A DNA stretch of 64,000 nt from positions 6,542,001 through 6,606,000 of the forward strand of contig NZ_CP127294.1 of assembly GCF_030285625.1 (NCBI RefSeq). The letters run 5' to 3'. Each line of letters starts with the position of its first letter. Position 1 is the first letter of the stretch. This document shows positions 42,413 through 56,400 of the stretch, one piece after another. The notes beneath the pieces were generated by a model that saw only the letters and a program-made list of their open reading frames with translations, did not search any database and was not told the DNA's origin. The stretch is from Amycolatopsis sp. 2-15 (GTDB taxonomy: Bacteria; Actinomycetota; Actinomycetes; Mycobacteriales; Pseudonocardiaceae). A program made the position numbers and the translations under genes.

Positions 42413-44268
42413 ATGGCCACGCCCGCGTTCGACGCCTACGGCTACAGCCTCGACGCGCACGGCCCGGGCGTCGACCGGTTCGTGGTGCTCAACGACGCGC
42501 CGCTGCGCGAAGGCGACGGCGCCGACCTGCTGGAGACGACCCGGGTCGCGCGCGGCCTCGCCGACCTCATCGTCGCATCGCGCGACGCCGCGCCGTTCGC
42601 GCTCGCCGTGGATGCCGCCTGGGGCATGGGCAAGAGCAGCCTGATGCGCGAACTGGAGTCGACGCTGGCCGCCGAGCCGGCGGTAGCGGTGGTGTGGTTC
42701 AACGCGTGGACGTCGGGGCAGGCCAGCGCGCTCGAAGGCCTGATCAAGTCCGTGCTACTGCGCTTCGATCGCAACCTCGTGCGGCGGGCCGTGCGGTCGA
42801 TCCAGCGGCGGACCCACCTGCTGGGGGTGCTGCGTGCGGCCGCGCTGGTGTCGGGCAGCGTGTTCGGCCTCGGCCGGCTGGTCGACGAGATCTGGCGGGC
42901 GCTCTCGCTCGATGCCCGGTCCCGCAACCAGATGAAGGGTGTGCTGCGCGACTTGTTCGCGGCCTGGTTGGCCAAGGGTGCGCAAGCGGGCGACCGCCGC
43001 CTGTTGGTGGTGTTCGTCGACGACCTCGACCGCTGTGCGGCCGAGCGCATCGTCGAGGTGTGCGAAGCGACCAAGCTGTACCTCGACGTGCCGGGTGTCG
43101 TGTTCGTGCTGGCCTGCGACCAGGCGGTGCTGTGGAAGGCCGTGCAAGGCGCGGCGGCCGACGACGAGCCGGCGGGCGCGGTCGAGTACCTGGAGAAGAT
43201 CATCCAGATCAACTACCGGATTCCGCCGCCGAGCACCGCGTCGGCGCTGCGGCTCGTCGACGGTTACCTGGAGATGTCGCGAACCGCGGGCCTGTTCGAC
43301 GAGTCGATGAAGAGCGTGATCATCGAACGTTCCGGCGGAACCCGCGGCGGATCAAGCGGCTCATCAACAGTTTCGTGCTGGAGTACCACCTGAACCGGTC
43401 GTGGGACGAGCTCGGCGTCGCCAACCTCGTCCGGGTCGTGCTGCTGCAGCACTTCTACCCGGCCTTCTACGGCATTCTGGTCAACCCGCGTGAGGCGGAC
43501 CCGATCCGGGACTTCCTGCGCTACCACGAGTTCCGCGCGCAGGTCCGGCACGGCGACGCCGAGGATCGCCACGACTGGCGGGAACTGTTCACGGACAAGC
43601 GACTCCGGCCGCCCGACCCCGCACAGCGGTCGCTCACGGAGTCGCTTGCCGAGCTGGAACGCGAGCTGCCGGCCCAGTTCCCGTTGCTGGTCGCGGACCG
43701 CGACTTCGTCGCGCTGCTCGAAAGCCTCGACGGGCCCGTCAATTCGGACCGGTTCCGGCCGCTCCTGCGCAAGCCGCTGACCGGTGGCCCCGCGCTGTCC
43801 CCGCCGGAGCCGGCGTACTTGGCGCCGTGGTCACAACCGCGGCAACCCCTGACGGCGACCGGCGACGACGTCGATCTCGCCGGCTTGCGAGTGCTGTGGA
43901 TCGACGACAACCCGGTCAGCAACCGCCGGGTGATCGAGCGGCTGTCGAACGCCGGGGCCGCCGTGACGACCGCGACGGACCGCACCTCGGATTTCGCCGC
44001 GGCACTGCGTGATGGTGAACCCGACGTCGTCCTCTCCGACTTCACCCGCGACGGCGACCCATTCAGGGGCGTCGACGACCTGGCCTACATCCGCGAGCGC
44101 GGCCTCTACCACGGGCCGGTGATCTTCTGCTCCGGTCAGCGGCTCCCGCAACTACTGCGCCGCGTCGAAGAGCCGGGTGCGATCGGCCCGACCAACGACG
44201 AGAACGAGATCGTCCGCTGGGTGGCGCGCATCGCGGCGCCGAAGGCCGCGCCACGTCCACCTGGCTAG
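42413..44268 (+). pseudogene. KAP-type P-loop NTPase fused to a receiver-like domain, frameshifted
   Basis: The N-terminal frame (42413 to about 43335) has KAP NTPase features: Walker A AAWGMGKSSLM, WFNAWTSGQAS and Walker B VVFVDDLDRC. Its reading must lose its place by one base near 43335 to continue as RRNPRRIKRLINSFVLEYHL, a KAP hallmark, and run to 44268. The restored protein is 618 residues. The last ~120 residues look like a response-regulator receiver: LRVLWIDDNPVSNRRV with acidic pocket, and DVVLSDFTRD with a phospho-acceptor-like Asp. The usual Lys near the end is not obvious. KAP NTPases often belong to defence or signalling systems. One missing G in a run would explain the shift. 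Confidence 0.8.
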
Positions 44269-44322
44269 CCGGTGGGCCACACCAGGTGATGGCGCGGCCC
44301 ACCGGACCGGGCTGATCATCGG

Positions 44323-46542
44323 TTACGGCTGACGTCCTGCCGTAGCCGGCGCCGCCAGTTCGGTGAGTCCCGTCAGCGCCACCGGCAACGGGCCGCGGTG
44401 CAGGACGCCGAGGCGCTGCGTCGCGCGGGTGAGCGCCACATACAGCTCGGCGGCGCCGCGGGGGCCGTCGTCGAGGATGCGGTCCGGGTCGACGACCAGG
44501 ACGGAGTCGAACTCCAGCCCCTTCGTCTCCGCGGCCGGCACCGCGCCGGGCACGTCCGCGGGCCCGATGACGACGCTGGTGCCCTCGCGCCCGGCCTCCT
44601 CCCGCGCGAACTCCTCCACCGCGGCGGGCAGTTCGGCCTCGGTGACGGGCCGGGACCACGGCTGGACCCCGTTGGCGCGCACCGACTCCGGTGGCCGGAT
44701 CCCCGGGGCGAACCCGGCGAGCACCGCGGCCGCGACGCTCATGATCTCCGCCGGCGTGCGGTAGTTGACCGTGAGGGAGCGGTACACCCAGCGGTCGCTC
44801 ACGTAGCGCTCCAGCATCGAGGCCCACGACGTCGCCCCGGCTGCCGAGCGGCGTTGCGCGAGGTCGCCGACGACGGTGAAGGAGCGGCCCGGGCAGCGGC
44901 GCATCAGCACGCGCCAGTCCATTTCGGACAGTTCCTGGGCCTCGTCGACCACCACGTGGCGGTAGGTCCAGTCGCGGTCGGCGGCGGCGCGTTCGACGAG
45001 GTCGCGGGTGTCGCGTTCGGTGAACCGGTCGGCGAGGTCCTCGGCGTAGAGCAGGTCCTTGGCGAGCAGGCCGACGTCGTCGTTGAGGTCCTCGCGTTCG
45101 ATGAGCGAGTCGAGCACGTTGGCAGCGTAGGCGGCCTGGGTCCTGCGCTCCCGCTCGGCGGCCTGCTCGGCCCGGGCGTCGGCGGCCTTGTCGCGGCCCA
45201 GCAGGTCGACGAGCTCGTCGAGCAGCGGCACGTCCGACACCGTCCAGGCCTCGCCGTCTTCACGCAGCAGCGCCGCGTCGGCGCCGGCCGCGCGCAGCCG
45301 CTCCGGTGACTCGTAGAGCGACGCCAGCAGGCCTTGCGGCGTGAGGATGGGCCACAGCTCGTCGACGGCGGCGACGAACCGCGGGTTGCCGGCGAGGTCC
45401 TTGACGAGGGTGCGCTTGAGGTCGTCACGTTCCTCGCGGTCGTCGCGGCCCAGCCAGCCGCGGCCGATGCGGTTGATCGCTCGCTCGGTGAGCACGTAGG
45501 TGACGATCTCGGTGAACACGTCGCGGGCCTCGTTGTGCGGCAGCCCGCTCGCGCGCGCCTCTTCGACGGCCCACTGCGCGGTCTCGGCGTCGATGCGCAC
45601 GGTGACGTCGCCGACCGTGATCGGCACCGGCTCCTCCGGCGTCCGCTGCCGGTCGGCGATCGCGGCGGCCAGCACGTCGAGGATCTTCAGCTCACCCTTC
45701 AGCCGCGCCGCCTCCGGCCCATCCTCGGCGGTCACGTGCAGGCCGGGCACGAAACCGCCGGTGGTCGTGAACACCACGTCCGTCTCGCCCAGCGACGGCA
45801 GCACGCGCCCGATGTGGTTCAGGAACGCCGGGTTCGGCCCGACGACCAGCGCGCCGTGGCGTTCCATCCGCTCGCGCTGCGTGTAGAGCAGGTAGGCGAC
45901 GCGGTGCAGCGCCACCACGGTCTTCCCGGTGCCCGGGCCGCCCTCGATCACCAGCACGCCGGGATGGTCGAGCCGGATGATCTCGTCCTGCTCGGCCTGG
46001 ATCGTCGCCACGATGTCGCGCATGCCCTCGCCGCGCGGCGCGTTGACGGCCGCCAGCAGCGCCGCGTCGTCGGCGTCGGCGTCACTGTGCTCGCCGGAGG
46101 CAGGCCGGCCGAGCACCTCGTCGGTGAACTCGATGACCCGCCGCCCGCGCGTGTGGAACTGGCGCCGCCGGCGCACGTTCTCCGGGTTCGCCCCGGTCGC
46201 GGTGTAGAACGGGCGCGCCGCGGGCGCCCGCCAGTCGAGCAGCACGGGCCGGTACTCGTCCTCCTCGTCGAACAACCCGATGCGGCCGATGTAGGACACG
46301 TCGGCGTCGAGCGCGTCCAGGCGGCCGAAGCACAGGCCGTTGTCCACCACGTCCAGCCTTCGCACCTCCCTGCCCAGCGCGCGCACGCGGACGTCGCGCT
46401 CCATGGGCGTCCCGCCGTTTTCCCCCAGCGCCGCCTCGTACTCGCCCTTCACCCGCGCCCGTTCCCCGTCGAGCCGCGTGTAAAGCCCGGCGACGTACGC
46501 GCGCTCGGACTGCAATTCCTGTTCGTACCCCTCGGCCGACAC
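44323..46542 (-). CDS. helR: HelR/HelD-type RNA polymerase-associated UvrD-like ATPase
   Basis: This 739-residue superfamily 1 protein has an N-terminal coiled coil (EQELQSERAYVAGLYTRLDGE), P-loop GGPGTGKT (201-208), DEAQELSEMDW and a C-terminal helicase motif ALTRATQRLG. Actinobacterial HelD proteins of this size remove stalled RNA polymerase from DNA, and the HelR subgroup dislodges rifamycins from the enzyme. The 19-bp inverted repeat 73 nt upstream resembles the rifamycin-associated element and supports the HelR assignment. GTG at 46542 follows AAGGGG. If no rifamycin response is found, the broader HelD label stands. Confidence 0.85.
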   Translation of the reverse strand: MSAEGYEQELQSERAYVAGLYTRLDGERARVKGEYEAALGENGGTPMERDVRVRALGREVRRLDVVDNGLCFGRLDALDADVSYIGRIGLFDEEDEYRPVLLDWRAPAARPFYTATGANPENVRRRRQFHTRGRRVIEFTDEVLGRPASGEHSDADADDAALLAAVNAPRGEGMRDIVATIQAEQDEIIRLDHPGVLVIEGGPGTGKTVVALHRVAYLLYTQRERMERHGALVVGPNPAFLNHIGRVLPSLGETDVVFTTTGGFVPGLHVTAEDGPEAARLKGELKILDVLAAAIADRQRTPEEPVPITVGDVTVRIDAETAQWAVEEARASGLPHNEARDVFTEIVTYVLTERAINRIGRGWLGRDDREERDDLKRTLVKDLAGNPRFVAAVDELWPILTPQGLLASLYESPERLRAAGADAALLREDGEAWTVSDVPLLDELVDLLGRDKAADARAEQAAERERRTQAAYAANVLDSLIEREDLNDDVGLLAKDLLYAEDLADRFTERDTRDLVERAAADRDWTYRHVVVDEAQELSEMDWRVLMRRCPGRSFTVVGDLAQRRSAAGATSWASMLERYVSDRWVYRSLTVNYRTPAEIMSVAAAVLAGFAPGIRPPESVRANGVQPWSRPVTEAELPAAVEEFAREEAGREGTSVVIGPADVPGAVPAAETKGLEFDSVLVVDPDRILDDGPRGAAELYVALTRATQRLGVLHRGPLPVALTGLTELAAPATAGRQP

Positions 46543-46633: not shown

Positions 46634-46866
46634 GGGCTGCGTTATAAGTTGATAGTGGCGGGGGGAGTGTGTTTTCCTTCCCGCCGTCCCCCGGCCTCGA
46701 GATCTCACTCGTACAGGTGAGCCGGACCTTCCTCTTCGTGTTCATGCCGTGTTCGCGCACGCGGCGACACCACTTCTTCCCGCGATGATCGGGTGGGTTT
46801 GTCACACCCATCTCGGCGATCGCGTCGCCTTCTGGCGTGCTGGTCGCGGCGAACCCAGGAGGACGG

Positions 46867-47853
46867 ATGCGCAGATTCTCGGCGGTGGCGGCGATGGTGG
46901 AAACCGCGGTGGCCGTCGTGGCACTGGTGGCCGCGGTCCCGTCGGTGGCCGACGCCGCACCCGCGGGATCGGGCACCCCGATCGTGATCACCGAGCAGGG
47001 CTTCGACCAGATCGACATCCTCGACGCGACCGACGCCGCCTTCGGCGCGGCCAAGACGCTGTGGACGTGGAAACCGACGGCGGCCAACGGCTTCGCGGAC
47101 CTGACCACCGCGTGGGGACTGCCCGACGAGGCCCAGCTGCGCCACCTCGGCACCCAGCAGTACCTGCTCACCACCGACTCCTACGGCCTGGCCGCGGTCG
47201 TGTCCTACCCGCAGGGCACCGGCTCCTACTGGGCCGCGAACGTCGGCGCTTCGAACAACCCGCACAGCGCCGAGCTGCTGCCCGACGGGAACGTCGCGGT
47301 GACCGCCAGCAACGGCGGTTTCGTCCGCGTCTACACCGCTTCGCAGGGCAACCGCTCCACCACCTACGCCCAGTTCGACCTGCCCGGCGCCCACGGCGTC
47401 TACTACGACCCCACCACGCGCCTGCTCTGGGCCGTCGGCAACGGCGACCTCGTCGGACTCGACGTCGCCGGCACCCCGGCGGCCCCGACGCTGGGCAAGG
47501 TCGTGGACACGCCCCTGCCCGCCGGCCCCACCTCCTACGGCCACGACGTCTACCCGGTCCGCGGCAACGCCGACCGCCTGTGGGTCACCACCGTCGCTGG
47601 CGTGTTCCAGTACTCGCTCTCGGCCCACACGTTCACCAAGGACTTCGCCGGCCAGGCCACCATCGACCGCCCCGACGTCAAGAGCATCGGCGACGCCCCG
47701 GTCACCGGGCAGGTCGTGACCTCGGCCATCCAGCCGGGCAACGCCTGCCCCTGGTGCACCGACACGGTGGACCTGTACCGGCCGCAGCACGCTCTGGAGC
47801 TGCACGGTGGGCAGATCTACAAGGCGCGGTGGTGGCTGGATCCGCGTCCGTGA
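46867..47853 (+). CDS. Secreted beta-propeller protein (DUF6528-like)
   Basis: The 328-residue product has a signal peptide (VAVVALVAAVPSVADAA) and a repetitive beta-rich body with GSYWAANVGASNNPHSAELLP, HGVYYDPTTRLLWAVGN and YGHDVYPV. This is typical of an extracellular propeller of the DUF6528 type. AGGAGG precedes the ATG. Its function is unknown; binding of a carbohydrate or protein is a guess. The 324-nt gap to helR carries the RAE-like element and otherwise nothing recognised. Confidence 0.8.
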   Translation: MRRFSAVAAMVETAVAVVALVAAVPSVADAAPAGSGTPIVITEQGFDQIDILDATDAAFGAAKTLWTWKPTAANGFADLTTAWGLPDEAQLRHLGTQQYLLTTDSYGLAAVVSYPQGTGSYWAANVGASNNPHSAELLPDGNVAVTASNGGFVRVYTASQGNRSTTYAQFDLPGAHGVYYDPTTRLLWAVGNGDLVGLDVAGTPAAPTLGKVVDTPLPAGPTSYGHDVYPVRGNADRLWVTTVAGVFQYSLSAHTFTKDFAGQATIDRPDVKSIGDAPVTGQVVTSAIQPGNACPWCTDTVDLYRPQHALELHGGQIYKARWWLDPRP

Positions 47854-47870
47854 CCCGAGCCTGACGGGAC

Positions 47871-50800
47871 TCAGAGGTTGTCGGGCGCGCGACGTGCACG
47901 CTCGACAACCTCGTCCTCGGTCAGCGGTCCGTCGTGGTGGCTGAGGCAGAGGGGTACGTCGATCCGGACATAAGCGGTTCCCTCGCCAGCGGCGTAGAAG
48001 CTGCCGCGGCTGAGGGAACCGGGCTCACCGATGATCGAGTTCCGCGCGGCTGCCATCGCCTTGACGGCCTCCACCTGGGCGGCCGCCGTGACCCTGCCGA
48101 CGAACTGGTTGGCCGTGTTCCCCAACGCCTGGTTGTGGATTCCCTTCGGCGCTTGGGACGCGAGCACGATTCCCAGACCATACTTCCGGACCTGACGGAT
48201 CAGGTCCACCGTGCTGTCAGTGCTGGGGTTGGACGCACCGGACGGCACGAAATTCTGCGCCTCGTCGAGAATCAGCAGGCCGCCCAGCGTGCCGCCCGTG
48301 GCGGGGTGTGCCTTGAACCACGAGAACAAGGCGGCCTGCAGGCGGTTGACGAACTGTGTCGGTGCGTCGCCCGACAGCCCGGCGAAGCTGATCACCGAAA
48401 CCCGAGCCCGGTTGCCCGGCGACGGCGTCAGGAGGACACCCGGGTCGACGGACCGGCCCGAGTCGTCGAGGAGCGGGTCCGTGTCGAGCGCGGCTTCGAG
48501 GGTGTGTCCGCCATACTGTCGGCCAGCTTGCGGGTCCGCGCGTTCACCATGTCACTCGGCGGTTCGGCAAGCAGTTCCACGAGGCCCCTCAAGTTTCGTC
48601 CGCCCTCACGGGCGTAGTGGACGAGGGCGCGGCGCAGGACGCCCCGCTGCTGGGTGGCCCGGGCAGAGGCGCCGCGGATGCCGACGTGCGGTGCGAGGGT
48701 GTTCACCGTCGAGGTGAGCAGCCCTCTGAAGTCGTCCGCGTCGTCGAGGACCGGACCGAAGTCGGGCAGGGGGTTGAAGAACAGCGGATGGCCACGGATG
48801 AGGCCCGGTGTCCACACGACCACCTCGGTGCTGGAGAAGTACCGCTCCGCTTCGGCAGCCTGGCCTTCGTGCCACGCCGGCGGCGATGTCGGCCAGGGAT
48901 CGCCGAGCCGGGCGAGATCGTCGTTCGGATCAAGGACGATGCTCGAAACGCCGCGCAGCGCACACTGCTCCACGATCCGCTTCAGCAGCACGGTCTTCCC
49001 CGAACCGGCAGCGCCGATCACCACTGTGTGCATCCGGAGCTGCTCCAGAGAAGCGTCGAAGAACCGACCACCTCGCCGGCTCGTGCCGAACGTGATGGTC
49101 GGCGCGAAGTCCTCGGCATGCCGAGAAGCTGACTCCTCGAGAGGCTCCTCCGGATTCATTGTGCCGCCGGGATCGCCGAGATACTGGTGCAGTTGGGCGA
49201 CGAGCGAGGAGAACACCTCGGTCCGGGAGGCGGGCCGTGTCCGTCGCAGCCATCCGCCGAAGCCCGGCATGCCCTCGTCGAGCATCCGCCGCAATGCCGC
49301 CAACGTCCGCAGATCGTCACCGCTGATCGGGACGGACCGGCCCCCTCGGGCTTCGAAATCGGCCTTGATTTCCCCGGTCTTGCGGCCCGATGGATAGCGG
49401 GTGTTGCGCAACAGCGACAGGTGCCGGCTCACCACACCTGGCTCGAGCCCGGCCTCGGTCATCGCGTTGCGCATCTGCGACTGCGCGGAGAGAGCGTTGC
49501 CTGTGGCTACGCCACGGAAGGACCACCGGACGTCGTTCTCGATTGCCTCGTCGAGGACGAGCCGCAACTGTGCGTGCAGCGCGGCCCTGCGCCCGAAGCC
49601 GGCCTCGACCACAAACCGGGATTCGTCCACCGCGAATTCGGTCATCAAGCACTTGAGCCCCGCGCTCACCAGGCCAGGCATGAGCCGGTCTTCGGTTGCC
49701 TTGTCGAGCGGCATCTCCGGATCCGCCTCGCTCCGCAGCGCCTCGAACCGCTCGGTAAGCGCTTCGTCTCCGGAACGGTCCTCGCTGACCGATGCGATGC
49801 TGACCGTAGTGGCGGCCGCCTTCGTGTCACTCAGCGTGGTCAGTTCGACCACGTGCCCGGAATCCAGGCAGGACTTGACGTGCTGGGCCACCCGTTGCAG
49901 GAGCCGGCGGACCGTATAGCGCCGCGGCGCTTCCGCGAGTGCGGTCGTGGTGATTGGGAAAGTCGGGCACGGCGGGGTGAACCCAGTCGACGCGTAGGTC
50001 TCGCGCAGACGGCTCGCGACGATCGCGGCGGCCGTTGCATTGTCCGGGATCGCCCCGAGTTCCGGAAGGAGATCGAACCGGTCCAGCGCCGAGCCCATGG
50101 CCGCTTGAGAGATCTTGTGCCAGGTGTCCGGCTGGCAGGCGACAACCATCAGCGTGCGGCGGGTCTCTTCCCGAAGGTCCATCAGCCCGTCGGCGATGTC
50201 CCCGCTCAGGCGCCTGGCGGCCCGGCGCTCGCCCGACGAAGGCGTGGTGAGCGACGAACTCTCGGACACGGCCACGAGGTTGTCGAGCTGGTCAAACGCG
50301 AAGACCAACGGGCCGACGAGGGCGAACAGCCGGGTCAGATCGCGCAGCACACGCTGGGCCGGGGTCGCGCCGGAAGGCAAACCCCACACGGCGCGCTGGC
50401 CCAGCTCGTCATCGTTGAGCGCAAAGTACGAGGTGCCGGCCGCCACGGCATCGTCCCGTGCGGCAGCGACCAGTGCCAGCGCGCGAGCGGTGTCGCGAGC
50501 CTCGTTGCCCACTTGCCGGTCCAGCCGGCGGATCCCACCGATGAAGGTGTCGAGGTCGGCAGGCGTCACGTCGCGTTCGCCAGTGACGGCGCCACACGTC
50601 GCGTCATCGAGCCCCGCCGCTCGCGAAAGTTCGCGCAGCAGGTGCAGCAGTTGCTCCTGTCCTCCCTCGTCTTTGCGGTAGAGGCTGTCGACCAGGCTGC
50701 CCGTGGCGCTGCGCCAGAAGTCGTGGCCGTTCACGAGCTTGATGTAGAAGAAGAACCCGCCTCGGCTCTGGATCTCCTCACGGGTCCAGCTGAGCAGGTG

Positions 50801-51007
50801 GGTCTTCCCGGCCCCGGTTTCGCCCTGGATCACGGCCGCGGTCGGAGCGCGATCGTCGCTGACTACGGCCATCGCCGCGAGGAGCCGCCGTGATACGTGG
50901 GGGTGGAGGCTTTCGACATGGTATGGCGAGACCGAGTCCCACACCTCGTCCTGCGTCGGCGCCGTGCCGAGGTGCAGCCGGCTGAGGGCTTCCAGCTCCC
51001 CGTTCAC
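47871..51007 (-). pseudogene. Double P-loop ATPase with HerA-like C-terminus, one frameshift
   Basis: From ATG 51007 the frame encodes an N-terminal NTPase with GETGAGKT (62-69) and LVFAFDQLD (234-242), and a HerA/FtsK-like module with GAAGSGKT (665-672) and VLDPNDDL. At about 48501-48507, in a GTGTGT run, the frame shifts. It resumes with LEAALDTDPLL, VSVISFAGL, GLLILDEAQNF (Walker B) and GLGIVLASQAPKG, and ends at 47871. Removing two bases restores 1044 residues. HerA-like ATPases pair with nucleases in DNA processing and phage defence, matching the nuclease two genes upstream. A DNA-translocating role is inferred. The start overlaps the upstream gene by ATGA. Confidence 0.8.
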
Positions 51008-51615
51008 TCTGCCTCGATCTTCAGCAGGTGACGTGCCTGTCCTCCGATGTCAACCGCTGCGTCGTTCTCCTCGTCGGTCAGCGACTTCCGGTTCAGTTCG
51101 GCCATCAGCCGCACGTCGGGCTGCTCGATCATCCGATCGAGCTCGGCATCGACCACCTCCCTTGGGATGTTTTCGAGCCAGGGGCGGACCGTCGATAGCT
51201 TGACCCAGCTCCCCGGCGGTCGGCGCACCGTCAGCTCCGTGTACACCGCGCGGATCCAGCCCTCGAGATCGGGCTTGAAGAACTCGCCGAACTTGATGTC
51301 CGATCGCGCGAGGAATTGCCCGACGGTCTCCATCGCGGCGTAGAGGGCGCCCGCGGGGAACTTCGCACCGTCCGGGCGGCCGGCCGCGAGCGCCGACTCA
51401 CACCAGCTTCGGCCCTCTGCCGTGAGCCGATGAGTGTTGACCGCCCCGCGCTTCGTGGTCGAAATGAGTTCGACTTCCTGATTGGCCCGCGCGCGGACGG
51501 CCGCGGTGATCTCGAGGCCGGCGAGGTCGCGCAGCTCCCGGTTCGTCACCGGCCGCGCCACCATCATCAGCGTGAACAGCGAAACCTGGTCGCGTACGGT
51601 CATCTCGGTTGCCAC
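51004..51615 (-). CDS. Winged-helix-like protein of the ATPase operon
   Basis: The 203-residue protein has an N-terminal winged-helix-like region (VTNRELRDLAGLEITAAVR and the RLTAEGRSWCE wing), followed by a helical domain. I know no named family. GTG at 51615 follows GGAGG at 6 nt; longer in-frame starts overlap the upstream gene. Its stop overlaps the ATPase start (ATGA), so it is translated together with it. It may recruit the ATPase to DNA or be an adaptor. Confidence 0.75.
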   Translation of the reverse strand: MATEMTVRDQVSLFTLMMVARPVTNRELRDLAGLEITAAVRARANQEVELISTTKRGAVNTHRLTAEGRSWCESALAAGRPDGAKFPAGALYAAMETVGQFLARSDIKFGEFFKPDLEGWIRAVYTELTVRRPPGSWVKLSTVRPWLENIPREVVDAELDRMIEQPDVRLMAELNRKSLTDEENDAAVDIGGQARHLLKIEAE

Positions 51616-51640
51616 GGTCGTCCTCCGGATTCGGATCGGT

Positions 51641-52729
51641 TCAGATCTCGAGGTCCCGGCCGGGTACCAGCTCCACCCGGCCGGTCGTGCTGGACAGTTC
51701 GCCGGACACGCTGACCTGGCGGTGCTCGCGATGAGCGGCGATCGCGCGGTCGTAGGTGTTCTGGTCGGGCAGACGGACCCAAACCGATTTCCGGGGTGAC
51801 TGGCGGTCGTGTTCGGTTCGCAGGGTGCCGGCCACCTTGATGCGCCACCGGTCGCCGCCGGCATCGTCGTCGTGCAGCCCGCTGATGGTCCCGGCGACCG
51901 AGGCCGGGCCGGACGCGTTGAGTCCGCGCAACCTGGCTGCCGCCGCCTTCAACAGTGGTTCCGCGTGAGCGGGGAATGCCAGCGCCGACGTCGGTGCGTC
52001 GTGAGGCCGAGCGCGAGCCCACCGGAACGTGACTTCGAACGGTTCGCCGCCGGAACCGGACAGGCCGCTCAACGCGGTGCACAGATCGGCTGAGACGCCG
52101 GCGGTGACGGCTTCGTCGAAGGCGGCCGGCCGGTCGGTCAGCACGGCGGTCTGGGCCGCCGCGACAGCTTCGTGGAGTTGTACGAGCACCATTCGCCCGT
52201 CAAACTGCTCCTCCGGCGTTGCCCGGGCCGTCGCGTTCGCCGCCAACCGGACTTCGATGACGTAGCTGCCCGCCCTGGCAGGCCCGAGTTCCGCGGCCCG
52301 CACGAGATCACCGACTGCGGCAGGTGACCGCCCGGCGAACGCAAAGTGCGGTCCCTGCAGCGCTGTCCGGGCCGCCGTCGCGAGAAGGTCACGTACGCCC
52401 TTCACCGCCTGAAGACCGGATTCCAGTGAGGTATAACCGGAGTCGTGTTCGGCCGGGAAGGTGCGGAAGAGCTGCTTGTCCAGGTCGGGACGGGAGATTT
52501 CCTGCGTGACGTCGGGTATCGGGCGGTCTTCCACCTCCGCCAGGCACCTGAGGATCTCGCGGACCCTGCGTTCGCCGTCGCCCATGCCGTCGCGGATGGG
52601 CACTGATACCTCGAAGTCGTCGGGGTGGTGCCAGGTGCTCGTTCCCCGCAGGTCGTGCGGATCCTGTTCTTCCCAGCCCGTCTGGGCGAGGTAGCTGATG
52701 ATGTCGGCGACGTTCAGCGGCGTTGGCAC
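51641..52729 (-). CDS. Unknown protein of the ATPase-nuclease operon
   Basis: This 362-residue protein begins MPTPLNVADIISYLAQTGWEE. Its C-terminal ~100 residues (ASVAGTISGLHDDDAGG, VWVRLPDQNTYDRAI, VSVSGELSSTTGRVEL) look like an OB-fold-type beta domain. No catalytic motif is visible. It starts 7 nt after the nuclease stop codon and ends 25 nt before the winged-helix gene, so it belongs to the same transcript. It may be a sensor or nucleic-acid-binding subunit. Confidence 0.7.
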   Translation of the reverse strand: MPTPLNVADIISYLAQTGWEEQDPHDLRGTSTWHHPDDFEVSVPIRDGMGDGERRVREILRCLAEVEDRPIPDVTQEISRPDLDKQLFRTFPAEHDSGYTSLESGLQAVKGVRDLLATAARTALQGPHFAFAGRSPAAVGDLVRAAELGPARAGSYVIEVRLAANATARATPEEQFDGRMVLVQLHEAVAAAQTAVLTDRPAAFDEAVTAGVSADLCTALSGLSGSGGEPFEVTFRWARARPHDAPTSALAFPAHAEPLLKAAAARLRGLNASGPASVAGTISGLHDDDAGGDRWRIKVAGTLRTEHDRQSPRKSVWVRLPDQNTYDRAIAAHREHRQVSVSGELSSTTGRVELVPGRDLEI

Positions 52730-52736
52730 CTGTGGC

Positions 52737-53240
52737 TCACCAGACCGATCGAGTCTCGGTGAGCCGGCGCAGCGTGGTGGCGGTCAGCACGTTGGCGGTG
52801 GGAACCTTGACCGGGCGTTTCTTGTGCTTGTCGGGGTTCGCGATCGGCTGTTCGGCGTGCAGGGAGACGAAGTAGCCGAGGTGGCGTAACAGCACGCCCT
52901 CCGTCAGGGACGCGGCGTAGGAGGCACTGTCGGACGGGACGCAGATCACGAAGAGGAACCGGGGGATCGAGAAGTCGGGTCCGGCGAGCTTGTTGAATTG
53001 CCATTCGCTGAGGCCACGGTAGATCAAGTTCCCCGACGATTGCCGCGGGGCCGACCATGTCTTGATCTGTGCCTCGATGGTGGGCGAGAAGACTTTTCCG
53101 TACTGCCCGGTGGCACGGAATCCGAGATCGATACCGTCGACGTCGAGATCTTCTTTCAGCACGAGCAACCCGGCGGCCGAGGCGAGCACCCGGACGTAGT
53201 CCTCTCCGAACTTGCCCTGGTGCTGCTTGGCATCGAGCAT
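52737..53240 (-). CDS. DUF4365-family PD-(D/E)XK nuclease-like protein
   Basis: This 167-residue protein has the DUF4365 pattern: GKFGEDYVRVLA at the start, VDGIDLGF and EAQIKTW. D38 and the Q58-x-K60 (or E56-x-x-x-K60) arrangement fit a PD-(D/E)XK active site, so DNA cleavage is predicted. ATG at 53240 follows GGGAGG. It is the first gene of the four-gene minus-strand operon, and a TACGCT -10 lies about 40 nt upstream. DUF4365 proteins are commonly found among restriction and defence genes. Confidence 0.8.
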   Translation of the reverse strand: MLDAKQHQGKFGEDYVRVLASAAGLLVLKEDLDVDGIDLGFRATGQYGKVFSPTIEAQIKTWSAPRQSSGNLIYRGLSEWQFNKLAGPDFSIPRFLFVICVPSDSASYAASLTEGVLLRHLGYFVSLHAEQPIANPDKHKKRPVKVPTANVLTATTLRRLTETRSVW

Positions 53241-53279
53241 GTCGTTGCCCTCCCCGAGCGTGAACGTGCCGCGTGGGGG

Positions 53280-53285
53280 AGCGTA
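53280..53285 (-). promoter_or_regulatory. Candidate -10 of the nuclease-ATPase operon
   Basis: TACGCT on the minus strand would give a leader of about 33 nt containing the GGGAGG ribosome site of the DUF4365 gene. Confidence 0.4.
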
Positions 53286-53388
53286 TTGGCGGTGCCGGGG
53301 TCTGTCTGTACGGCAACGTGTTGATTCACCGGTCGGCATTCGTCGCCGTCGATGACGCGCAAGGGCGCAGACGTGTGATTTTTCAGGT

Positions 53389-53443
53389 GGTTTCCGAGAA
53401 ACCAGGTGAGTCCCGATTTCGGGCGGTCAGGGCTCACCTGGTT
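53389..53443 (-). terminator. Compound hairpin after kamA-like gene
   Basis: AACCAGGTGAG (53400-53410) and CTCACCTGGTT (53433-53443) pair over 11 bp around an inner CCCGATTTCGGG hairpin. A second small hairpin, GGTTTC-CGA-GAAACC, follows at 53389-53403. It lies just after the stop codon of the minus-strand aminomutase gene and before the promoter of the nuclease operon. Confidence 0.7.
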
Positions 53444-53460
53444 CCGAGAACGTGGAGAAC

Positions 53461-54981: not shown

Positions 54982-56400
54982 TCAGGCGGCCGGACGGATG
55001 TTGTGGTTCACGCGGAACAGGTTGCCCGGGTCGTAGACGTGCTTCACCGCGGCGAGCCGGTCGTAGCGCTCCGGCCCGTAGATCGCGCGCACCGCGGCGG
55101 CCGACGAGCCCTCGTCGACCGAGAGGAAGTTCGGCGACTGCCGCTCGGCCGACCACGGCTCCAGCGCACCGACAACGTTGTCGAGGGCCACGCGCAGCTG
55201 CCCGGCGCGTTCGGGGCCGCCGACGCCGAGCGCGAACAGCAGAAACGGCACCCCGCGCACGGGCACCGCGTTCGGCGCCGCGGGCTCGCGGTCCAGCGCG
55301 CCGCCCAGGGCACGCAGCTCGACACCCAGCAGCGGACAGTCCGAGTCCGGTCCGGTGAGCTCGACGAGCGTGTCGATCGTCTCGGCGGTGACCTCGCGCA
55401 GGCTGGTGGTGCGGTCGTAGTACGGGAGCGGGTCGGCCGGGTCGAGGTGGATCTCGCCGATCGCGCTGAACGGCTTGTCCTCCACCAGGTCCAGCAGCAC
55501 CGGGGCGACGTCGCGCAGTGGCGCGAGGAGCCGTTCGGCGTCGGCGGGCGAGCCGAGGTGGGCGAAGCGCAGGTGCACCACGAACGCGCCGCGCAGCACG
55601 TCGGGTAGTTCGGGTACCGGCGGCAGCCGCTGCACCATCACCGACGTCGTGGCCTCCTCCGGCAGCAGCGGCACCCACTGGCGCCACGCGTGCAGCACCG
55701 CGGCGAGGTCCTCGCCCGCGTAGTAGAGGCCGCCGCCGTAGAAGCGGGTCACGGGGAACAGGTCGAATTCGAGCGCGGTGACCACGCCGAAGTTGCCCTT
55801 GCCGCCGCGCAGCGCCCAGAACAGGTCGCGCTCGGTCTCGGCCGTCACGGTCCGGTGCGCGCCGTCGGCGGTCACGACTTCGATGAGCCGCACGTGGTCG
55901 GCGGCGTAGCCGCGGGTCCGCCCGATCACGGGGCTGAGGCCGCCGCCGAGCGTGTAGCCGACGACGCCGACGCCCGGCGCGGACCCGGCCAGCGGTGCCA
56001 GCCCGTGCTCGGCGGCGGCGTCGAGGACCTGCTGCCAGCGGGCACCGGCCTCGACGCGGGCGGTGCGCCGGCGCGGGTCGACGGTCACGCCGGTCATTCC
56101 GCTCGTGGTGATCAGCACCGCGCCGTGCGCCGGAACCGCGACCTGGTGAGCCGTGGCCTTGATCGCTACGGGCAGTGATCGGCGCCGCGCGAACCGGACG
56201 GCGTTCTGCACGTCGGCTGCCGACGCCGCGGCGACGACGAGCGCGGGTTCGAGCGGGTTGTTGAAGTTGAAGGCGGCGCACTCGGCGGCGTACCCGTGCT
56301 CGCCCGGCAGCAGCACCTCGCCTTCGGTCACGGCGACGAGGTCGGTGATGTCTTCGGCCTGGATGAGCCCGGTCACCGGGCTCGCGACGATCTGGTGCAT
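54982..56400 (-). CDS. BBE-type FAD-linked oxidase
   Basis: The 472-residue flavoprotein has the VAO/PCMH FAD domain (VVAAASAADVQNAVRFARRRS and GYTLGGGLSPVIGRTRG, with RGGKGNFGVVTALEF) and the C-terminal berberine-bridge segment YDPGNLFRVNHNI. A His in the KATAHQVAVPAHG region could be a covalent flavin site. It likely oxidises a secondary metabolite or sugar. No Tat or Sec signal is present, so it is cytoplasmic. The substrate is unknown. Confidence 0.9.
   Translation of the reverse strand: MHQIVASPVTGLIQAEDITDLVAVTEGEVLLPGEHGYAAECAAFNFNNPLEPALVVAAASAADVQNAVRFARRRSLPVAIKATAHQVAVPAHGAVLITTSGMTGVTVDPRRRTARVEAGARWQQVLDAAAEHGLAPLAGSAPGVGVVGYTLGGGLSPVIGRTRGYAADHVRLIEVVTADGAHRTVTAETERDLFWALRGGKGNFGVVTALEFDLFPVTRFYGGGLYYAGEDLAAVLHAWRQWVPLLPEEATTSVMVQRLPPVPELPDVLRGAFVVHLRFAHLGSPADAERLLAPLRDVAPVLLDLVEDKPFSAIGEIHLDPADPLPYYDRTTSLREVTAETIDTLVELTGPDSDCPLLGVELRALGGALDREPAAPNAVPVRGVPFLLFALGVGGPERAGQLRVALDNVVGALEPWSAERQSPNFLSVDEGSSAAAVRAIYGPERYDRLAAVKHVYDPGNLFRVNHNIRPAA

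What the first reader, a model, noticed from the sequence alone, without database searches (positions are those of the whole stretch)
47871..53240. Four-gene DUF4365 nuclease / unknown / winged-helix / HerA-like double-ATPase operon: candidate undescribed defence system
Four minus-strand genes are packed with a 7-nt gap, a 25-nt gap and an ATGA overlap, after one promoter-ribosome-site region. The first encodes a PD-(D/E)XK-type DUF4365 protein and the last a protein with two P-loop NTPase modules, the second HerA-like. HerA-nuclease pairing is known from several antiphage systems, but I do not recall one with this gene order or with this 362-residue protein and winged-helix partner. It lies in the accessory half of the window, next to another KAP NTPase gene. 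The ATPase gene carries one frameshift, so the strain's copy may be inactive.
Basis: partly seen in the sequence, partly recalled or inferred. Interest (0 to 1): 0.8.

Follow-up and report, generated by a model that had tools for sequence, protein, structure and literature searches.

The report
Modular HerA defence operon, nuclease version
Four neighbouring bacterial genes look like an immune system against foreign DNA in which a shared DNA-motor pair is combined, in different soil bacteria, with different killing proteins; here the killing part is a predicted DNA-cutting enzyme, and the motor gene is broken in this strain's assembled genome.

The parts
52737..53240 (-). A: DUF4365 protein, 167 aa, predicted PD-(D/E)XK nuclease; Q58-I-K60 motif present
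   Evidence: Pfam PF14280 E 4.1e-11; PADLOC PDC-M02A E 3.7e-88; alignment A3; Q and K named as potential active-site residues of a DUF4365 nuclease in PMC10810196 (passages)
51641..52729 (-). B: 362-aa partner; model shows a HicA-like N-terminal unit (about 1-78) and a C-terminal OB fold (about 273-362)
51004..51615 (-). C: 203-aa protein without family match, constant partner of D; winged-helix adaptor (inferred)
   Evidence: No Pfam/PADLOC/NCBIfam match; within 60 nt upstream of D in 80 of 80 D-selected loci; plasmid proteins matching its C-terminal half are annotated helix-turn-helix
48428..51007 (-). D, first piece (859 aa as assembled): AAA-type ATPase, middle domain, HerA part with Walker A
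   Evidence: AAA_16 E 3.8e-11, DUF87/HerA E 5.4e-6; fold of a full-length homologue, L049
47871..48503 (-). D, second piece after the frameshift: HerA part with the DEAQ Walker B-like motif and the C-terminus
   Evidence: translation; PADLOC HerA E 8.4e-9 and mad8 E 7.4e-9
46760..53459 (.). about 6.7-kb stretch with the operon and a DUF6528 gene, absent from two close relatives whose flanks are collinear
   Evidence: blastn of the window against L189 (G051) and L190 (G049), which have 834 and 64 bases there instead; GC 0.66-0.68 over 48-54 kb, lower than most of the window, though the first 10 kb are also partly that low

Best explanation
The locus is a four-gene anti-invader (phage/plasmid) system of actinobacteria: a nuclease-armed variant of the 'HerA/FtsK capture' type. 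C and D form the sensing and motor core: D carries an AAA-type ATPase, a middle domain of restriction-endonuclease-like topology without an evident catalytic motif, and a HerA translocase; C is a small DNA-binding adaptor. The core recognises or is loaded on foreign DNA, HerA pumps it, and the coupled effector is unleashed. In this version the effector is A (DUF4365 nuclease), positioned by B, whose HicA-like and OB folds suggest nucleic-acid binding. In relatives the same core drives other effectors (TIR, DUF559, perhaps AIPR). Shown here: gene co-occurrence, exchange of modules, fold of HerA and of B's ends, QxK motif in A, island context of some loci. Inferred: complex formation, DNA sensing and pumping, DNA cutting, protection from phage, C's fold. 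In this strain the system is probably inactive or partial because D is broken, unless the frameshift is a sequencing error.
Against: No experiment links any of these proteins to protection. At 7 of the 10 A+B loci I verified no known defence gene among the neighbours, and of the 10 flanking window proteins scanned only a KAP protein matches PADLOC well (about 1e-25). The catalytic lysine of A is replaced in 3 of 10 aligned class II members (QxR in L013 and L047, QxG in L050). The TIR version is present in at least 31 of 60 genus genomes, more like a resident function than a patchy defence system. A+B does without C-D in many genomes. The middle domain of D has no detectable sequence relation to A or to the DUF559 proteins, and C's fold was not predicted. 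D is broken here.
Confidence: 0.6

Rival explanations
1. A-B is a self-sufficient defence pair (PDC-M02) that merely travels with an independent C-D unit; the four genes do not work as one machine.
For: Of 10 genus genomes with B, 4 have A-B without C or D in the 16-17 kb fetched. In a genus taken to be Streptomyces, of 30 B loci examined 2 have A-B-C-D and 28 show neither C nor D in the flanks held, 25 of these 28 with a match to A.
Against: Tight operon spacing; A, B and D distances correlate in class II loci; in class I and III another module takes the same place before C.
Confidence: 0.17
2. The C-D core with its effectors is a regulated suicide or stress-response system of multicellular actinobacteria, not primarily antiviral.
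For: MinD/ParA, TIR, SEFIR and CATASP domains in class I recall the conflict systems of multicellular bacteria (PMC7159879, passages; CATRA itself from recall and one passage); class I is in at least 31 of 60 genus genomes.
Against: B is found in 10 of 80 genus genomes and A-B-C-D in 6 of them; the window's operon sits in a stretch missing from close relatives; Wadjet/DISARM genes lie beside some A+B loci.
Confidence: 0.13
3. Housekeeping DNA repair or chromosome-maintenance module of HerA-nuclease (HerA-NurA) type.
Against: The effector module is exchanged for TIR; patchy distribution (C matched in 6 of 396 genomes of the phylum, own included); absent from close relatives.
Confidence: 0.05
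4. Conjugation or plasmid-transfer module (HerA/VirB4/TrwB-like coupling ATPase).
Against: Apart from the HerA-like domain itself, no relaxase or transfer gene among the window proteins scanned with Pfam; B matched 4 and C 7 plasmid records of 72,556.
Confidence: 0.05

Closest known systems
PADLOC candidate PDC-M02 (A+B)
   Same: A and B match its two protein families over nearly full length; adjacent and in the same order.
   Different: Only A- and B-type models of PDC-M02 appeared among the matches; here C and D follow in the same operon. No paper with 'PDC-M02' was found in the library.
'HerA/FtsK capture' systems with Orc/CDC6 ATPase (PMC10853773)
   Same: HerA/FtsK translocase + AAA-type ATPase + small putative DNA-binding protein + nuclease in one operon; the paper says the domains combine in single or multiple polypeptides (section 22).
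   Different: AAA and HerA in one chain; the nuclease is DUF4365 with a HicA/OB partner; in relatives TIR+MinD, DUF559 or AIPR stand in its place. The main text of that paper holds neither 'DUF4365' nor 'MinD'.
HerA-DUF4297 and SIR2/HerA antiphage complexes
   Different: Their effectors are DUF4297 or SIR2; here DUF4365, and the motor carries an extra N-terminal ATPase and a constant small partner C.
SPARDA-type short Argonaute with DUF4365-APAZ (PMC10810196)
   Same: DUF4365 nuclease as effector; Q and K of QxK named as potential active-site residues (passages).
   Different: No Argonaute or APAZ protein among the matches of the four genes.
MADS defence system (mad8)
   Same: D's HerA part gives its best PADLOC score to mad8 (E 4.4e-12; down to 7e-22 in a relative).
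   Different: Other mad genes are not in the operon.

Membership tests
PADLOC PDC-M02 | Protein of PDC-M02A family | tested here: met
   E 3.7e-88
PADLOC PDC-M02 | Protein of PDC-M02B family adjacent to it | tested here: met
   E 3.4e-127, 7-nt gap
PADLOC PDC-M02 | Antiphage activity | not testable with these tools
   No experiment found in the papers searched
HerA/FtsK capture systems (Orc/CDC6 type) | HerA/FtsK ATPase domain | tested here: met
HerA/FtsK capture systems (Orc/CDC6 type) | Orc/CDC6-family AAA+ ATPase | tested here: inconclusive
   AAA_16 E 3.8e-11; orc1/cdc6 model only E 0.048; best PDB sequence match E 0.023
HerA/FtsK capture systems (Orc/CDC6 type) | Inactive REase domain between the AAA+ core and a wHTH | tested here: inconclusive
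   Order of helices and strands at 446-565 of the D model fits; no sequence support; domain not folded alone
HerA/FtsK capture systems (Orc/CDC6 type) | wHTH protein | tested here: inconclusive
   C has no family match; plasmid relatives of its C-terminal half annotated helix-turn-helix
HerA/FtsK capture systems (Orc/CDC6 type) | Active REase of one of the two families named there (one shared with AbiJ) | tested here: inconclusive
   A is DUF4365 with QxK; whether that is one of the two families was not resolved
HerA-DUF4297 / SIR2-HerA two-gene systems | DUF4297 or SIR2 effector | tested here: not met
   A matches only DUF4365 in Pfam; B and C none
SPARDA short Argonaute | Short pAgo and APAZ domain | tested here: not met
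   None among the Pfam and PADLOC matches of the four genes (for D 25 of 39 Pfam and 22 of 22 PADLOC rows were shown)
MADS | Set of mad genes beside mad8 | tested here: not met
   Of 15 window proteins or pieces scanned with PADLOC only the two D pieces, a helicase (mad8, E 9.8e-7) and a distant MerR gene (mad1, E 3.2e-8) match any mad model

The most novel reading that the evidence does not exclude
C-D is a common immune chassis of actinobacteria: one DNA-sensing motor pair onto which unrelated effectors have been plugged in evolution (NAD-consuming TIR with a MinD/ParA-like switch, DUF559 nuclease, DUF4365 nuclease with a HicA/OB partner, possibly AIPR), so that one trigger can lead either to DNA cutting or to NAD+ depletion.
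Probability: 0.5. Interest if true: 0.75.

Novelty: new variant of a known kind. Interest (0 to 1): 0.6.

Why it matters
If true, it links an unnamed candidate pair (PDC-M02) and a widespread TIR operon of the same bacteria through one shared motor pair, showing that nuclease-type and NAD-depleting immunity can share a sensor. The effector exchange makes an open question testable: whether HerA motors are generic invader detectors and the effector decides between DNA clearance and abortive infection. It would also give function to C and to B, for which Pfam and NCBIfam have no model.

Tried and rejected

Limits: the 80 D-selected loci are the best-scoring of at least 562 relatives, not a random sample. 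The two locus sets overlap (for example L013 and L049 are the same place). The island test used a home-made gene caller that misses low-GC3 genes, counts families rather than genes (models of one gene are counted several times), and has 10 loci a side, of which 5 test loci have A-B-C-D and 5 A-B only; single verification covers 9 proteins of 3 loci, 8 of which matched. Control matches: mad3 (2 proteins), PDC-M42C and CARF5 (1 each); mad3 also matched 4 test proteins. Loci dropped: L024 (D truncated); L024, L051 and L115, because no D gene was called there. The tree is a quick one (LG+G4) with long branches meeting, among them the window's clade with L029. Mantel p does not correct for shared host history, and used 10 of 15 class II loci known to me. 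Contig lengths shared between B, C and D homologues (35 of 59 D contigs over 6 kb share a length with a B or C hit) were used only as a rough check. The name Streptomyces for the genus searched is inferred, and the name Amycolatopsis for the host.

Full report
What is there. Four minus-strand genes lie at 53240-47871: A (167 aa), B (362 aa), C (203 aa) and D, which is split by a frameshift into an 859-aa ORF and a second open stretch. Spacing is 7 nt, 25 nt and a GTGA overlap. The window is part of a single 10.05-Mb contig. The nearest relatives of B and D found are in Amycolatopsis rhabdoformis (94% and 88% identity), whose D is one 1040-aa protein.

Families. A is DUF4365 (Pfam E 4.1e-11). 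PADLOC-DB gives A as PDC-M02A (E 3.7e-88) and B as PDC-M02B (E 3.4e-127). C has no match in Pfam, PADLOC or NCBIfam; D matches generic AAA models, HerA and, best in PADLOC, mad8. So A and B are already listed as a phage-defence candidate, without a paper that I could find.

Relatives. C was searched in 100 genomes: 51 match, namely 46 of 60 of the genus (own included) and 5 of 40 of the order, some by its C-terminal half only. Forty loci around C matches and 80 loci found by D were compared. In the 80 D-selected loci C is within 60 nt upstream of D in all 80; the module before C is TIR + MinD-type protein in 29, the DUF559-type protein in 33, A+B in 8 and other or none in 10. In the 39 usable C-selected loci the counts are 31, 1, 3 and 4, with C adjacent in 39. 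Module I, scanned in L011, is a TIR protein and a MinD/ParA-TIR-CATASP protein; in 43 loci a roughly 320-aa gene stands before it (cluster 3), which is a SEFIR protein in the one scanned. Module III carries a C-terminal DUF559 domain in 3 of 3 scanned. L037 and L044 have a 576-aa gene after D, AIPR/AbiU in the one scanned. Five loci have a divergent 1.3-kaa gene beside C-D; the one scanned has WD40 repeats.

Reciprocal view. B occurs in 10 of 80 genus genomes, own included. Six of the ten have A-B-C-D (window, L013, L029, L047; G508 and G505, these two with unbroken D) and four have A-B without C or D in the stretches fetched. In a genus taken to be Streptomyces, B occurs in 36 of 295 genomes; of 30 loci examined 2 have A-B-C-D, the two with B most like the window's (65-67%), and 28 show neither C nor D within the flanks held, 25 of them with a match to A.

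Evolution. In a quick tree of 113 D proteins, class I is one side of a branch (SH-aLRT 100), class II needs three changes even if only starred branches are trusted, and all labels together need 8 changes (shuffled mean 49.6). Forcing class II into one clade is rejected (p-AU 0.00013). Within class II, distances correlate over 10 loci: A-B r 0.85, A-D 0.73, B-D 0.68. The simplest reading is an old A-B-C-D unit in which A-B was later replaced by TIR-MinD or by DUF559 proteins; repeated gain is not excluded, because the tree has no root.

Active site. The QxK motif that PMC10810196 (passages) names for a DUF4365 nuclease is kept in the window (Q58, K60). Of 10 aligned A proteins, L013 and L047 have QxR and L050 has QxG.

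Context. Around 10 A-B loci, 110 neighbour proteins match 74 PADLOC families at E<=1e-20; 145 proteins from elsewhere in the same genomes match 3. Verified: L029's A-B-C-D lies between JetA/JetB and JetC/JetD of a Wadjet type II set; L141's A-B is next to DrmB and DrmA; L175's A-B is flanked by an Orf5/HEC-06 match and DrmD. The other seven loci were not shown to have known defence neighbours. In the window the operon and a DUF6528 gene lie in a stretch (about 46760-53459) missing from G051 and G049, the two genomes nearest in a flanking gene (98% and 95%), whose flanks are collinear at 91-98% and 75-92% DNA identity; 42446-44338 with the KAP gene is a second such stretch.

Mechanism. I propose that C-D detect and translocate foreign DNA and activate the coupled effector; with A-B this means DNA cleavage near the motor. 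Every functional step is inferred from domain content and from the published model of HerA/FtsK capture systems (PMC10853773, passages and section 22). In this strain the break separates HerA's Walker A (first piece) from its DEAQ motif (second piece), so the unit is probably not working as assembled.

Verdict. A real, recurring operon; half of it catalogued as PDC-M02, the whole best seen as a new variant of HerA-type capture systems with exchangeable effectors. The exchange is the interesting part.

Noticed in passing
L011 5459-12573 and 30 further C-selected loci: A TIR + MinD/ParA-TIR-CATASP + C + D operon, often with a divergent roughly 320-aa (SEFIR-NPCBM in L011) gene, is present in at least 31 of 60 genus genomes; in L011 PADLOC gives only bSEFIR, PDC-M28B and mad8/HerA matches.
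   Followed up: partly
window 42413-44268: KAP NTPase gene (PADLOC QatA/PifA/PDC-S20 about 1e-25) with a response-regulator-like gene, in a second stretch absent from G051 and G049.
   Followed up: partly
window 44323-46542: Large UvrD-like helicase gene (739 aa) with weak GajB similarity (E 1.6e-10), collinear in close relatives.
   Followed up: no
L013 and L047: A proteins are 96% identical while B and D are only 62% and 61% identical, and both carry QxR instead of QxK: recent exchange of A or unusual constraint.
   Followed up: no
L029 618-17571: A-B-C-D lies between the two halves (JetA/JetB and JetC/JetD) of a Wadjet type II set.
   Followed up: partly
L139 1-2276 and 4023-9333: A class II operon and part of a second D gene lie within 2 kb of each other.
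   Followed up: no
C residues 114-202; L186 5530-6312, L187 3818-4252: The C-terminal half of C recurs alone in other genomes and in plasmid proteins annotated helix-turn-helix.
   Followed up: partly
L112 517-4488 and L081, L094, L097, L128: Divergent 1.3-kaa gene beside C-D, with WD40 repeats in the one scanned.
   Followed up: no
L093 9132-9314: A 61-residue remnant of A upstream of C-D without B: a decayed class II locus.
   Followed up: no
window 54982-56400: FAD-dependent oxidoreductase close to BagK/FevA models but below their cut-off.
   Followed up: no
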